Source: Rubrobacter indicoceani (GTDB taxonomy: Bacteria > Actinomycetota > Rubrobacteria > Rubrobacterales > Rubrobacteraceae). From it: a stretch of 64,000 nt of DNA. Location: assembly GCF_003568865.1 (NCBI RefSeq), contig NZ_CP031115.1:1364001-1428000 (forward strand), given 5' to 3'. Positions within the stretch are counted from its first letter, which is position 1. The number at the start of each line of letters is the position of its first letter. Both the position numbers and the translations under genes were made by a program. Below are positions 18,113 through 58,037 of this stretch, in pieces. Below the pieces are notes generated by a model, which saw only the letters and a program-made list of their open reading frames with translations, ran no database searches and was not told the DNA's origin.

Positions 18113-18150
18113 AAAAGAGGGGGTCGGATAAAGCTCCGACCCCCTCTTTT
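18113..18150. terminator. Bidirectional intrinsic terminator between ribH and rpmB
   Basis: A perfect 16-bp inverted repeat, 18113-18128 with 18135-18150, core GAGGGGGTCGGA, has a 6-base loop. It ends in TTTT on the + strand and, by symmetry, on the - strand. It sits between convergent genes and can end both transcripts. It is the clearest terminator in the window. Confidence 0.9.
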
Positions 18151-40149: not shown

Positions 40150-40752
40150 TTGCCGGAGGCGCACGAACTCTACGCCTTCGATGCGGCTTGGATTGCCGAA
40201 CGGGGCTCCGGCGGGCCGCTTGCCGGGGCGGACGAAGCCGGACGCGGGGCGTTCGCCGGGCCGATCTTCGCTGCGGCGGTGGTTCTCGGTGCCGGTGAGA
40301 TAGAAGGAATAAAGGATTCGAAGCTCCTGAGCGCAGACGCTCGGGGGCTTCTTTTTTCGGGGGTGATCGGGGCTGCAGAGGCCGTTTCGTTGGTCTCCTA
40401 TCCGGCGTGGTGGATAGACGCGCACGGGCTCGGTCGGGCAAACCGGGAGGCCCTTACCCGCGCGCTCGAGCTCGTCTCCGACCGGGCTGGGTGTCTGCTT
40501 GCGGACGGAAAGCTGCGCATCGGCGGCGCGGAGTCGCTGCCGAGGGCGGATGGCTCGAGCGCGGCGGTTGCGGCGGCGAGCATAGTGGCCAAGGTTATGC
40601 GGGACCACGCGATGACTTGTCTTGCGTCGGTGTACCCGGCCTACGGTTTCGAGCGGCACAAGGGTTACGGAACGGCTCAGCATCGGGCCGCGCTTATGGA
40701 GGTCGGGCCTTGCCGGGTGCATCGTCTGAGTTACCGGGGCGTCGGGGCTTGA
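40150..40752 (+). CDS. rnhB: Ribonuclease HII
   Basis: A 200-residue enzyme that removes ribonucleotides from DNA. The catalytic DEAGRGAFAGP motif, the Asp in IKDSKLL, and the later acidic site in LLADGKLRI are present; the ending SIVAKVMRD and YPAYGFERHKGYGTAQH is typical. TTG start at 40150. No signal peptidase gene lies between rplS and rnhB, as is found in some relatives. Confidence 0.94.
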   Translation: MPEAHELYAFDAAWIAERGSGGPLAGADEAGRGAFAGPIFAAAVVLGAGEIEGIKDSKLLSADARGLLFSGVIGAAEAVSLVSYPAWWIDAHGLGRANREALTRALELVSDRAGCLLADGKLRIGGAESLPRADGSSAAVAAASIVAKVMRDHAMTCLASVYPAYGFERHKGYGTAQHRAALMEVGPCRVHRLSYRGVGA

Positions 40753-53025: not shown

Positions 53026-53425
53026 CAAGTCCTGGGCCCCCGTACGGCGGCGGGTGTCTGTGCGGGGCGGTCCGTTACTCGGTCTCGGGAAGCCCGGAGG
53101 CCGTCTCGGTCTGTCACTGCAACTCCTGTCGCAGGGCCGTCGGCGCGACGCCCGTAACGTGGGTTATCTTCTGGTCTGAACACTTCGAGATGCAGGGGCG
53201 CCCCCCGTCTCCTACCCGTCCTCGGCGAACGCGACGCGGACGTTCTGCGGTCGGTGCGGGACTTCGCTTACCTTCAGGGGGGATAACTCGCCCGAGTCCG
53301 TAGACATAACCCTTGCCAGCTTCGACGAACCCACCCGGTTTGTTCCCGAGCGGTACATCTGGCTGGAAGACCGGGTCACCGCGCCGGAACCGGGGCTTGC
53401 CAGGTACGGGCAGGATCCTCTCTGA
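53026..53425 (+). pseudogene. GFA/CENP-V family zinc protein, frameshifted and without a start codon
   Basis: Two frames together give a GFA-family (glutathione-dependent formaldehyde-activating-like) protein. The first frame, from about 53046, reads GGGCLCGAVRYSVSG...CHCNSCRRAVGA. The second, from about 53213, reads SYPSSANATRTFCGRCG and continues to TGA at 53423-53425. The switch falls at or just after the CCCCCC run near 53200. One added base would restore a normal family sequence. No ATG, GTG or TTG opens the first frame after ispG. It looks like a recent remnant; a sequencing error in the C-run is possible for the frameshift but does not supply a start. Confidence 0.75.
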
Positions 53426-53451: not shown

Positions 53452-53479
53452 TTGTAACCGGGGTACTCTGGGATATAAT
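53452..53479 (+). promoter_or_regulatory. Promoter of the rimP-nusA-infB operon
   Basis: TTGTAA (53452-53457) and a perfect TATAAT (53474-53479) are 16 bases apart, the best promoter match in the window. Transcription should begin near 53486, just before the hairpin at 53497. Confidence 0.75.
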
Positions 53480-53496
53480 TCACTACGTTGTATGGG

Positions 53497-53528
53497 AGCA
53501 AGGGGTCCTCGGACTCGTTGCTTTTTTT
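53497..53528 (+). terminator. Intrinsic terminator / attenuator in the rimP-nusA leader
   Basis: AGCAA (53497-53501) pairs with TTGCT (53518-53522), with a further inner stem through GGTCC/GGACT, and the hairpin is followed by seven T (53522-53528). It lies about 11 bases after the predicted transcription start and about 33 bases before rimP, so it interrupts the operon leader. In Bacillus the same operon is autoregulated by NusA-stimulated termination in its leader; the same is inferred here. It could also end readthrough from ispG. Confidence 0.75.
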
Positions 53529-53560
53529 ATCGTCTTTTGTAACTGTTTTATACGGAGAAG

Positions 53561-54025
53561 GTGGTTGAAACGGCGAGTTTGGAGCGGTTGTCCAGGGTGG
53601 TCGAAGAGGCCCTGCCGGAGGGGGCCGAGCTTGTAGAGGCTCGGTTCTCGGGTGGGCCTCTTTTGACGCTGCTCATAGACAACCTGCGCGGCAGCGTGGA
53701 CCACGAGTTCACGGTGCGGATCTCGCGGGCCATCTCTCCGGCGCTTGAAGGTGAAGGCTACGACGGGATGGTCGAGGTGTCCTCACCGGGCATCGAGCGC
53801 CCCCTGACGAAGCCGTCCCACTTCGAGCGTTTCACGGGGCATGAGGCGAGGGTTCGAACCTCGGAGGCGGTAGACGGGACCGACGGACGAAGAAAGTTCG
53901 CCGGGGTTATCGCCGGGGCGGGGAAGTCGGACTTCACGCTCAAGCTAGAGGACGATGGTTCGGAGATCGCAATAGACTACGCGAACGTAACACGGGCCAT
54001 CCTCAAGGAGGATCTCGACAAATGA
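53561..54025 (+). CDS. rimP: Ribosome maturation factor RimP
   Basis: A 154-residue 30S assembly factor. It has VEARFSGGPLLTLLID, the family motif VEVSSPGIERPLTKPSHFERFTGHEARV, and a C-terminal SH3-like domain ending with VTRAILKEDLD. GTG 53561 follows GGAGAAG. It opens the nusA operon as in most bacteria; the stop overlaps nusA by four bases. Confidence 0.94.
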   Translation: MVETASLERLSRVVEEALPEGAELVEARFSGGPLLTLLIDNLRGSVDHEFTVRISRAISPALEGEGYDGMVEVSSPGIERPLTKPSHFERFTGHEARVRTSEAVDGTDGRRKFAGVIAGAGKSDFTLKLEDDGSEIAIDYANVTRAILKEDLDK

Positions 54026-55140
54026 ATACCGCACTACTTTCCGCGCTGCACGACATAGAAACCGACAAGGGGATTCCGTTCCCCACGATAGTGGAAGTTC
54101 TTGAAGCCTCCCTGCTCTCGGCCTACGAGGAGCGCGAGGGCGCCGAAGAGGGGGCCGAGGTCGTCTTTGACCGGGAGACCGGTGATCTGCGGGTCGTCAG
54201 GGACGGTGAGGACATAACCCCGACGGACTTCACCCGCGTCGCGGCGAACGCGATGCGCAGCAACTTCATCGGGCGTCTGAACGAGGTCCACAACGATCGG
54301 CTCCTCGAAGAGTACGGCGACCGGATGGGCGAGGTCATAACCGGGATAGTCCAGCAGGCTCACCGCAGGATGACGATAGTGGATCTCGGGCAGGTCGAGG
54401 CCCTGCTCCCGGCCAGCGAGCAGGCGCCCGGTGAACGCTACGAAAACGGACAGCGGCTCAAGGTATATCTGCTGGAGATAAGGGAACCGGGCAGGAGCGG
54501 CCCCGCGCTCACCGTCAGCCGCCGCAACGAGGGTCTGCTGCGCGGTCTGTTCACGCTGGAAGTACCGGAGATCTACGACAACCTCGTGGAGATCAAGGCC
54601 GTAGCCCGCGAGGCGGGGCTTCGCTCGAAGGTCGCGGTCTGGTCGAACGAGATGGGCATAGACCCGGTCGGGGCGTGCGTTGGGCCGAGGGGCAGCCGGG
54701 TCCGCGCGGTCGTTTCGGAGCTTCGCAACGAGAAGATAGACATCATCCAGTGGGACCCCGACCCGGCCCGGTTTATCGCCAAAGCGCTTTCTCCGGCTCG
54801 CGTCCGGGAAGTGTATCTGGATGAGGACGAGCAGCAGGCCGAGGTTATAGTGCCGGACGATCAGCTCTCCCTGGCTATCGGGCGCGAGGGGCAGAACGCG
54901 CGGCTCGCGGTCAAGTTGACGGACTGGAAGATAGACATAAAGCCCGAGAGTCAGGCGATGGATCTGGAAGAAGACGGCGAGGAGTGGGAGCCGGACGAGG
55001 ACTCGGCGATGCACCGCTGTCGCGCCGTTTTGTCGAACGGCAGGCGCTGCGCGAACATGGCGCTTGCCGGGTCGCTTTTCTGTGGCATCCCGTCGCATCA
55101 GGATCAGGCCAAAGACTTCGAGGAGATGGTCGAGGGCTAG
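54022..55140 (+). CDS. nusA: Transcription factor NusA with C-terminal Cys3His extension
   Basis: A 372-residue elongation and termination factor. It has the N-terminal RNA polymerase-binding domain (about residues 1-110), an S1 domain (DRMGEVITGIVQQA, about 110-175), and two KH domains (VGACVGPRGSRVRAVVSEL and LSLAIGREGQNARLA, about 210-310). After a short acidic linker there is an extra motif with C333, C343, C354 and H359 (C-x9-C-x10-C-x4-H), like a small zinc knuckle. The ATG overlaps the rimP stop. The usual YlxR gene between nusA and infB is absent. Confidence 0.95.
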   Translation: MNTALLSALHDIETDKGIPFPTIVEVLEASLLSAYEEREGAEEGAEVVFDRETGDLRVVRDGEDITPTDFTRVAANAMRSNFIGRLNEVHNDRLLEEYGDRMGEVITGIVQQAHRRMTIVDLGQVEALLPASEQAPGERYENGQRLKVYLLEIREPGRSGPALTVSRRNEGLLRGLFTLEVPEIYDNLVEIKAVAREAGLRSKVAVWSNEMGIDPVGACVGPRGSRVRAVVSELRNEKIDIIQWDPDPARFIAKALSPARVREVYLDEDEQQAEVIVPDDQLSLAIGREGQNARLAVKLTDWKIDIKPESQAMDLEEDGEEWEPDEDSAMHRCRAVLSNGRRCANMALAGSLFCGIPSHQDQAKDFEEMVEG

Positions 55141-55203: not shown

Positions 55204-57348
55204 ATGAGCAGGCGTGTGTACGAGATCGCAAAGGAACAGAACCTCGATAATAAAGAGGTGATCAAGAAACTGAACGACGCCGGGCTGGAGGTCAAGCACC
55301 ACTCGGCTTCCATAGGAGACTCGGACTACGACAAGGTCTTCGGCAAGAACGCAAACGGCGCGGCGTCCTCGCCGCAGCCGACCGCAACGTCCGGGAACGG
55401 GGCGCAGGAACCGGCAAAGACGGAAAGCACGGAGAATAAGAGCCGGGGCGGGAGCAAGAAGCGTCGGCGGGTCGTTATAGACGCCAGCGCAAGAAACAAC
55501 AACCGCGACGCCGGACGTGAGAACCGGGGTGGTAAGCAGGCTCAGAGCGGCAACGGAAACGGTGCCCCGAAGGCCGCCCCGAAGGTTGAAGAAACCGCAC
55601 CCAAAGAGCCGGAGACTATCAAGGTGGAGCCGGGCGCGACGGTCGCGGACGTGGCGGAGGCCGTCGGGGTCCCGTCGGCGCGGATAGTGAAGATCCTCTT
55701 TGACATGGGTGAGATGCGGACCCAGACCCAGACGCTCTCGACGGAGGAGATAGAACTCGTCGCCGAGGAACTCGAGGTCAGGGTCGAGGTCGTGTCGGAG
55801 GATGTGGTCGCGGAGGAACCCGTCTACGACGATGCCGAGGCCGACCTTGTCGAGAAGGCCCCGGTCGTTACGGTTATGGGGCACGTGGACCACGGCAAGA
55901 CAAGCCTTCTGGACCGCATCCGCCGGGAGAACGTGCAGTCCGGTGAGGCGGGCGGCATCACGCAGCACATCGGCGCGTACCAGGTGACGAACGACGACGG
56001 CAGAAAAGTAACGTTTATAGATACGCCGGGCCACGAGGCGTTCACCGAGATGCGCGCTCGCGGCGCAAAGGTAACGGATGTGGTCGTGCTGGTCGTGGCC
56101 GCCGACGACGGAATCATGCCCCAGACCGACGAGGCCATCGAGCACTCAAAGGCCGCCGGGGTTCCGCTGGTGGTCGCGGTGAACAAGATAGACGTCCCGA
56201 ACGCGAACGTCGACAAGACGCTCGGAGAGCTCTCCGAGCGCGGCCTTATCCCAGAGGCTTACGGCGGTGAAACGGTCACGGTTCAGGTCTCGGCAAAGAC
56301 GGGCGAGGGGATAGACGAGCTGGTCGAGAACATCCTGATCGTCGCCGAGCTCGAAGACCTGAAGGCGAACCCGTCGGCGGGGGCGAGCGGCTACGTTATC
56401 GAGGGCGAGCGCGACCCCGGTCGCGGTCCGGTGGCGACGCTGCTCCTTAACCGGGGGACGCTCCACAAGGGCGACATCGTTCTTGCGGGGACGGCCTACG
56501 GTCGGGTGCGGGCGATGCTCGATTATCGGGGCAAACGCATACAGGACGCGGGCCCCGCTACGCCGGTCGAGATCCTCGGCCTCTCCGGCGTCCCCGAGGC
56601 CGGTACGCACTTCGAGGTCGTAAAGCACGAGCGACAGGCTCGCGGAAAGGCCCAGCAGGCCGAAGAGGCGATGCGGCGTCAGGAACTCGCCGAGGGCGGA
56701 CGAAGGCTCACGCTCGATCAGCTTCTCGGACAGGAGGGTTCCTCGGACCTCAACCTTGTGGTCAAGGCCGACGTTGCGGGCTCGGTCGAGGCCCTCAAGG
56801 AGTCCCTCGCCAAGCTCACGAACGACGAGGTGCGCGTGAACATCGTGCGCAGCGGCGTCGGGGCCATAACCGACTCGGATGCGATGCTTGCGAGCGCATC
56901 GGGCGGTATCCTGCTCGGCTTCAACGTTCGCCCGACAAACACGGCCAAGCAGGTCGCCGAGCGCGAGGGCGTCGAGATCCGCACCTACGACGTTATCTAC
57001 AAGGCGCTCGAAGAGATAGAGGATGCGATGCGCGGGATGCTCGCCCCGGAGGAACGCGAGCAGGAGACCGGAACCGCCGAGATCCGGGAGGTCTTCCGCG
57101 TTCCGAACATCGGGGCGATCGGCGGCTGCTACGTTACAAACGGCGAGATATCGCGCAACGACCGGGTCAGGGTCGTACGCGACGGCACCGTCGTCTACGA
57201 GGGGAACGTCGCCTCGATGCGCCGCTTCAAGGACGATGTCCGCTCCGTGCGCGAGGGCTTTGAGTGCGGCGTCGGGGTCGAGAACTTCAACGACGTTAAA
57301 GAAGGCGACGTTCTTGAGTTCTTCCGCATCGTCGAGATCCCGAGGTAG
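55204..57348 (+). CDS. infB: Translation initiation factor IF-2
   Basis: A 714-residue GTPase that places initiator tRNA on the 30S subunit. The N-terminal IF2_N motif ([20 protein letters not shown]) is followed by a disordered, Lys/Asn/Gly-rich linker (about residues 50-140). The G domain has GHVDHGKT (226-233), DTPGHEAF and NKIDV. The C-terminal beta-barrel domains follow. ATG 55204 is preceded by GGAGG at 55194-55198. Confidence 0.97.
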
Positions 57349-57363
57349 CGGAGGCTCCACGAC

Positions 57364-57645
57364 TTGTTCTGCAACGTGAGGCTCGAAGTGGAGTTGCCGT
57401 ACTCTTCGAGCCTCAAGGACAAGCGGCAGACGGTGCGCTCCATCAAGGACCGGCTCCGCAGGCGGAACGTCTCGATCGTCGAATCCGACCGGCAGGACTC
57501 CTGGCAGCGAGCCGTGATGGAGCTGACCTTCGCCGCCATCTCCGCCGGGGCCGCCGAGGAGAAACGAAACGAAGTCCGGGCGATGCTGCTCGGGTACCCG
57601 GAGATGGTTATCTCCACCTGGCAGGAAGACTTCTCGAATCTGTGA
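57364..57645 (+). CDS. DUF503/YlxP family protein
   Basis: A 93-residue protein of the YlxP/DUF503 family, encoded between infB and rbfA in many Gram-positive bacteria. It has the LPYSSSLKDKRQTVRSIKDRLRRRNVSIVE motif and the VMELTFAAISAGAAEE segment. TTG start at 57364. The molecular function is not established; gene order suggests ribosome maturation. Confidence 0.88.
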   Translation: MFCNVRLEVELPYSSSLKDKRQTVRSIKDRLRRRNVSIVESDRQDSWQRAVMELTFAAISAGAAEEKRNEVRAMLLGYPEMVISTWQEDFSNL

Positions 57646-57674
57646 TCCAGAAAGACAAACCGGCAGGTGAGCGC

Positions 57675-58037
57675 ATGAGCGAGAGAACAAGAAAGATAGA
57701 ATCCCAGTTGAAGGAGATAGTCGGCGTCGAGGTCTCCGAACTCTCCGACCCGCGCGTGCACGGCCTCGTTACCGTTACCGCCGTTCGCGTCAGCCCCGAC
57801 CTCGCCCACGCAACGGTACTCTACAGCGTCATAGACGACTCCCCCGAGGCCGAAGAGGACGCGAAGGTCGGCCTGCAGTCCGCCGCCGGACGCATTCAGG
57901 CCACCGTCGGCGCACAGACCCGCATGCGCCGCACGCCCCGGCTGCGCTTCGAGCCGGACCCGATGGTAGAACGCACCCGGAGCATCGAAAACGCACTCAG
58001 AGAGGTAAGAGATGAAAACAGACAGCGCGATAACTAA
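57675..58037 (+). CDS. rbfA: Ribosome-binding factor A
   Basis: A 120-residue KH-fold 30S maturation factor. It begins MSERTRKIESQLKEIVGVEV and has DPRVHGLVTVTAVRVSPDLAHATVLYSV, TRMRRTPRLRFEPDPMVERTRSIENAL. ATG 57675 follows AGGTGAGCGC; a GTG at 57642 overlapping the YlxP stop is the alternative. The 3' end overlaps nrnA by 26 bases. Confidence 0.93.
   Translation: MSERTRKIESQLKEIVGVEVSELSDPRVHGLVTVTAVRVSPDLAHATVLYSVIDDSPEAEEDAKVGLQSAAGRIQATVGAQTRMRRTPRLRFEPDPMVERTRSIENALREVRDENRQRDN

What the first reader, a model, noticed from the sequence alone, without database searches (positions are those of the whole stretch)
53452..53560. Promoter-proximal terminator in the rimP-nusA-infB leader, a probable NusA feedback attenuator
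A near-consensus promoter (TTGTAA-N16-TATAAT) is followed, after about 11 transcribed bases, by a hairpin and seven T. Every transcript from it must pass this terminator before rimP. In Bacillus the orthologous operon is autoregulated by NusA-dependent termination in its leader. The same logic appears here in a distant phylum.
Basis: partly seen in the sequence, partly recalled or inferred. Interest (0 to 1): 0.6.

Follow-up and report, generated by a model that had tools for sequence, protein, structure and literature searches.

The report
Diverged rimP-nusA leader attenuator in Rubrobacteraceae
Right after the promoter of an operon for ribosome and transcription factors lies a conserved RNA stop signal that probably lets the operon limit its own expression; this kind of switch is already known across bacteria, but one family (Rubrobacteraceae) carries its own strongly conserved, diverged version.

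Summary
A promoter (TTGTAA-N16-TATAAT, 53452-53479) is followed, after about 11 transcribed bases, by a terminator hairpin (53497-53522, -17.9 kcal/mol) and seven T, ending 33 nt before rimP. It is not chance: all 38 assembled Rubrobacteraceae rimP leaders carry the same hairpin; 24 of these were found through RimP, not through the motif. It occurs once per genome, and in 84,980 species it was found at rimP only in this family.

The kind of element is known: the rimP-leader of Naville & Gautheret 2010, for which NusA feedback was already suspected. I find leader terminators, mostly GAGTGGG...CCCACTC, in 34 of 44 other actinobacterial families, and a model of that form finds 28 of 29 Clostridia rimP leaders. 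It does not recognise the Rubrobacteraceae hairpin, which has an invariant AGCAA/UUGCU outer stem, an invariant G.G mismatch, an unusually short promoter distance, and a promoter spacer conserved far above its surroundings.

Attenuation is well supported. NusA as the sensed factor is likely by analogy (Bacillus, E. coli, Streptococcus) but untested here. The conserved spacer is unexplained. Verdict: new variant of a known kind, moderate interest.

The parts
53452..53457 (+). -35 hexamer TTGTAA (TTGTAAC invariant in 36 of 36 family leaders that hold the promoter)
53458..53473 (+). 16-nt promoter spacer, CCGGGGTACTCTGGGA here; family consensus CCTACATACTCTG plus 3 variable bases; conserved well above the sequence upstream of the -35, unexplained
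   Evidence: 1.38 against 0.27 bits per column; found only at rimP
53474..53479 (+). -10 hexamer TATAAT
53486..53496 (+). Predicted transcribed bases before the hairpin (start at about 53486-53487, inferred); contains the conserved G(C/T)TGT segment
53497..53522 (+). Terminator hairpin: outer stem AGCAA/TTGCT, G53502.G53517 mismatch, inner stem GGGTC/GACTC, loop CTCG
53522..53528 (+). U-tract, seven T; predicted 3' end of the short RNA
53561..54025 (+). rimP, first gene of the operon (GTG start as listed)
54022..55140 (+). nusA, product is the proposed feedback factor
55204..57348 (+). infB (IF2)
57642..58037 (+). rbfA

Best explanation
This is a leader attenuator of the rimP-nusA-infB-rbfA operon, in a form special to Rubrobacteraceae. 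RNA polymerase starts at about 53486, transcribes some 11 nt, then makes the hairpin and U-tract. A share of the polymerases stop there and release an RNA of about 40-45 nt; the rest read through into rimP. The most likely control is feedback: when NusA is plentiful it binds the early elongation complex, helps the imperfect hairpin (G.G mismatch, A-U base) to form and raises termination; when NusA is short, readthrough rises. Shown by sequence: promoter, hairpin, spacing, position and conservation. Inferred: that termination happens, that it is partial, and that NusA sets it.
For: Hairpin present in 38 of 38 assembled leaders of the family; 24 of them were found through RimP, so the motif was not used to select them. 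One copy per genome, none for the reversed control pattern. In the scan of 84,980 species all hits but three lie in this family, and those three are not at rimP. Selection acts on pairing: an inner pair varies as UA, UG and CG, and in G043 GGG changed to GAG stands against CUC, making an A-U pair. Core length varies by single bases, so the hairpin is not coding. The same arrangement in diverged sequence is found in 49 of 68 other actinobacterial rimP leaders against 1-3 of 68 in controls. NusA: Bacillus autoregulation by leader termination (PMC12288461); Streptococcus leader ending 31 nt after its start, NusA feedback proposed (PMC4448216); E. coli evidence cited there and in PMC2965389.
Against: No transcript data. 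The hairpin is fairly strong with an unbroken U6-7, so it might terminate without NusA; NusA-dependent terminators in Bacillus tend to have suboptimal hairpins or interrupted U-tracts (PMC8060035). The strict sequence conservation of the outer stem is more than NusA-aided termination is known to need.
Confidence: 0.6

Rival explanations
1. Attenuator set by another factor: a sequence-specific RNA-binding protein (RimP, IF2, a ribosomal protein or a dedicated regulator) reads the invariant outer stem and G.G mismatch, or stabilises a small 5' antiterminator hairpin, and NusA plays only its general part.
For: The outer stem and the G.G mismatch are invariant although pairing alone would allow change. 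The first transcribed bases G(C/T)TGT are conserved and pair with AGCAA somewhat better than shuffled versions (-3.4 against -2.3 kcal/mol; better than the shuffled mean in 31 of 35).
Against: The 5' pairing is short and far weaker than the terminator stem; the related sequences are not independent. No known binder. The common rimP-leader also conserves primary sequence, and NusA is the leading candidate there.
Confidence: 0.2
2. Fixed partial terminator: the hairpin simply lowers the output of a strong promoter by a constant fraction, without feedback.
For: The arrangement alone does not prove regulation; hairpin and U-tract are strong.
Against: A weaker promoter would do the same; invariant stem sequence and conservation of the arrangement in two phyla suggest a signal. 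Feedback is reported for the same operon in Bacillus and E. coli.
Confidence: 0.12
3. Boundary terminator: the hairpin ends transcripts coming from the genes upstream and has no role for rimP.
For: In some relatives the upstream gene ends next to the promoter (for example L012, L018 and L024), and the hairpin would stop readthrough.
Against: It stands after the promoter, at 13-17 nt from the -10 in all, with no room for a promoter after it. Upstream sequence and upstream genes differ between relatives while the hairpin does not.
Confidence: 0.05
4. The short terminated RNA is itself the functional product, a small regulatory RNA of about 40 nt.
For: Conserved promoter, start and end.
Against: Always directly before rimP, never elsewhere; most of it is terminator stem, leaving about 11 nt plus a small, variable loop.
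Confidence: 0.03

Closest known systems
rimP-leader (Naville & Gautheret 2010, PMC2965389)
   Same: Intrinsic terminator between promoter and rimP of the rimP-nusA-infB operon, no evident antiterminator, NusA suspected; GGG core on the 5' arm against C(C/U)C on the 3' arm; within the reported 4-130 nt of the gene
   Different: Flanks of the core differ (AGCAAG-GGG...C(C/U)C-GUUGCU instead of GAGU-GGG...CCC-ACUC), with a G.G mismatch where others have U-A; not matched by a model of the common form; closer to the promoter than in most other Actinomycetota
Bacillus subtilis nusA leader attenuator (stated in PMC12288461, whose source is Mondal et al. 2016, not held here)
   Same: NusA-stimulated intrinsic termination in the leader controls nusA expression, the mechanism proposed here
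   Different: The B. subtilis rimP leader is about 180 nt (PMC2965389) against about 75 nt here; NusA dependence not tested here; its sequence was not compared
Streptococcus agalactiae gbs0413-gbs0418 leader (PMC4448216)
   Same: Same operon; termination 31 nt after the start, seen by RNA-seq as short and long transcripts from one start; NusA feedback proposed
   Different: Different phylum; its sequence was not compared here
E. coli metY-rimP-nusA-infB leader with terminators t1 and t2 before rimP (PMC6511841)
   Same: Terminators before rimP and NusA feedback on its own operon
   Different: Several promoters, a tRNA gene and RNase III sites lie in that operon's leader region

Membership tests
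rimP-leader (Naville & Gautheret 2010) | Terminator hairpin with U-tract in the 5' leader of rimP-nusA-infB | tested here: met
rimP-leader (Naville & Gautheret 2010) | Conserved GGGc...gCCC in the stem | tested here: inconclusive
   A GGG...C(C/U)C core is at the right place (window GGGTC...GACTC), but the profile R2 built from 46 other actinobacterial leaders gives no significant match (window leader 9.3 bits, E 5.2), while the same profile finds 28 of 29 Clostridia leaders
rimP-leader (Naville & Gautheret 2010) | No clear antiterminator structure | tested here: met
   The terminator remains in the minimum-energy folds; only weak 5' pairing
rimP-leader (Naville & Gautheret 2010) | Terminator 4-130 nt from the gene start | tested here: met
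   U-tract ends about 33 nt before the GTG
Rfam families (release 15) | Covariance-model match at the leader | tested here: not met
   No match at the hairpin at E up to 10 in the window leader, none at E up to 1 in 20 family loci
NusA-autoregulated attenuator (B. subtilis type) | Termination rises with NusA and falls on NusA depletion | not testable with these tools
   needs in vitro transcription or a depletion strain
NusA-autoregulated attenuator (B. subtilis type) | nusA lies downstream in the same operon | tested here: met
   rimP and nusA overlap by 4 bp; Pfam hits for both

The most novel reading that the evidence does not exclude
Rubrobacteraceae have replaced the widespread rimP-leader hairpin by a recognition element of their own: the invariant outer stem with its G.G mismatch is bound by a dedicated protein, and the conserved promoter spacer (CCTACATACTCTG) is a DNA site for the same or a second regulator, so that initiation and early termination of the operon are controlled together within about 75 bp.
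Probability: 0.15. Interest if true: 0.6.

Novelty: new variant of a known kind. Interest (0 to 1): 0.37.

Why it matters
The rimP-leader was described as the most ubiquitous transcription attenuator, yet what reads it has been tested in few organisms. A family that keeps the arrangement but has changed the hairpin sequence gives a natural comparison: parts common to both forms (promoter-near position, GGG/CYC core, U-tract) are candidates for what the sensor needs, and parts that differ are not. The invariant G.G mismatch and the conserved promoter spacer are concrete, testable features. Neither form was found by Rfam in the actinobacterial loci scanned, so routine annotation misses both.

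Tried and rejected
Promoter-spacer regulon: the spacer motif occurs only at rimP; two further 2-mismatch hits lie inside apparent coding sequence. Leader peptide: hairpin length varies by single bases and ATG or GTG before it is present in only 15 of 37. Rfam membership: none. Common rimP-leader model R2 on Rubrobacteraceae: no significant match at the leader. A first model, R1, was built with a misplaced structure and discarded. The pair count counted the G.G position as a pair on purpose or by misplacement (it is not paired in any row) and left out the first G-C/U pair of the inner stem; the covariation it reports concerns the other inner pairs and is modest (one pair with changes on both sides). 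NusA zinc-finger tail as the partner of the diverged hairpin: not specific, because the tail also occurs in many families with the common hairpin. Hits of the motif in a Eubacteriales, a Verrucomicrobia and a Formivibrio genome: not at rimP, taken as chance.

Full report
What is there. The promoter TTGTAA-N16-TATAAT stands at 53452-53479. From a start at about 53486-53487 (inferred from the -10), about 11 nt are transcribed before the hairpin AGCAA-G-GGGTC-CTCG-GACTC-G-TTGCT (53497-53522) and seven T (53522-53528). The RNA folds at -17.9 kcal/mol, z -3.9. rimP begins with GTG at 53561, followed by nusA, infB and rbfA, confirmed by Pfam. Upstream are ispG (to 53025) and a frameshifted GFA-family remnant. 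In the whole window there are only about three hairpin-plus-U-tract sites of this quality.

Conservation in the family. The window belongs to Rubrobacteraceae: the motif scan of 84,980 species returned mostly records named Rubrobacter, Rubrobacteraceae or unnamed actinobacteria that coincide with members of the window's family. RimP was used to find relatives, and all 24 family loci show the same promoter and hairpin. A pattern for the hairpin occurs exactly once in 37 of 39 family genomes and never for the reversed control, each time before rimP. For two loci the RimP signature was not seen in the stretch translated; one, L022, is a RimP hit, and the other, L059, has the same N-terminal codons as its relatives. 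Of the two misses, G043 has a compensated variant, GGAGCCC...GGGCTC, that keeps pairing and the mismatch; G017 is 60% complete and no RimP was found in it. That makes 38 of 38 assembled leaders.

Anatomy. The -35 TTGTAAC is found in all 36 leaders long enough to hold it, the spacer is always 16 nt, and 13-17 nt separate the -10 from the hairpin. Hairpin energies run from -15 to -25 kcal/mol with T6 or T7. The outer stem AGCAA/UUGCU is invariant, next to it a G.G mismatch is present in every member, and the inner stem varies with pairing kept. In one member a Watson-Crick pair in place of the mismatch would add about 3 kcal/mol, so the mismatch weakens the terminator and yet is kept. Because the pattern fixes the outer stem and mismatch, the unbiased evidence for their invariance is the RimP-based set and the variant G043. 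Between the U-tract and the Thr-Ala codons near the RimP N-terminus there are mostly 22-27 nt, too little for another promoter. So rimP transcripts have to pass the hairpin.

Wider comparison. In 68 rimP loci from 44 other actinobacterial families, 49 (34 families) have a terminator-like hairpin within about 200 nt upstream, against 1 on the reverse strand, 1 in the stretch further upstream and 1-3 in random sequences of the same composition. 46 of the 49 have GGG...CCC and 38 have GTGGG...CCCAC. A structure count on 46 aligned hairpins gives 98.4% paired cells and covariation above all 500 shuffles; these sequences were picked by a GTGGG/CCCAC-like pattern, so invariance of that core is partly by selection. 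A model from them (R2) finds the hairpin upstream of rimP in 28 of 29 Clostridia loci at E below 0.1. This is the rimP-leader described by Naville & Gautheret in 2010 as the most ubiquitous transcription attenuator. The same model gives no significant match at the Rubrobacteraceae leaders (9.3 bits, E 5.2 in the window). The family therefore shares position, type and the GGG/C(C/U)C core, but not the flanking sequence.

Mechanism. Attenuation follows from the anatomy. NusA is the best candidate because NusA-stimulated leader termination is reported for Bacillus nusA (PMC12288461), proposed for Streptococcus agalactiae where the transcript ends 31 nt after its start (PMC4448216), and repression of the operon by NusA was shown in E. 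coli (cited in PMC2965389 and PMC4448216). None of this was tested for Rubrobacteraceae. The invariant outer stem and mismatch leave room for a sequence-specific binder. A short 5' pairing with AGCAA is slightly better than shuffled sequence but weak, and the leaders are related, so this is a hint only.

Unexplained. The promoter spacer is conserved at 1.38 bits per column against 0.27 just upstream of the -35 and its motif is found only at rimP. Ordinary promoters do not need this. A regulator binding there would be the simplest idea, without evidence so far. The bases A-N-CG after the U-tract are also conserved.

Confidence. Leader attenuator: about 0.85. Diverged variant of the rimP-leader rather than an unrelated element: about 0.8. 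The full explanation with NusA as the factor: about 0.6.

Noticed in passing
window 54022-55140 (nusA), C-terminal end: NusA ends in a zinc-finger-like tail (HRCRAVLSNGRRCANMALAGSLFCGIPSHQ) after an acidic linker, near-invariant in 24 of 24 Rubrobacteraceae. Alignments also cover the tail in many other actinobacterial families and stop before it in others. Pfam gives only a borderline zf-TRM13_CCCH match.
   Followed up: partly
window about 53043-53424: Remnant of a GFA-family gene (PF04828) between ispG and the promoter, split by a frameshift: both halves match the family in different frames. A decayed gene or a sequencing error.
   Followed up: partly
L002 1366-1393: In the closest relative a second GC-rich hairpin with a T-rich tail sits directly upstream of the rimP promoter, so that the -35 overlaps its tail.
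   Followed up: no
L075-L103, L136-L175: The common GAGTGGG...CCCACTC rimP-leader of Actinomycetota often has a TATAAT-like box some 20-37 nt before the hairpin; Rfam has no model that finds it in the 17 loci scanned.
   Followed up: partly
window 18115-18148 and 40320-40351: The two other clear intrinsic terminators of the window; the first works on both strands by its sequence.
   Followed up: no
other actinobacterial families (f10, f13, f19, f25, f30, f31, f41, f42, f54, f65): Ten families showed no leader terminator at rimP by the criterion, though f13 and f41 carry a GTGGG...CCCAC hairpin with a poor U-tract. How these regulate the operon was not looked at.
   Followed up: no
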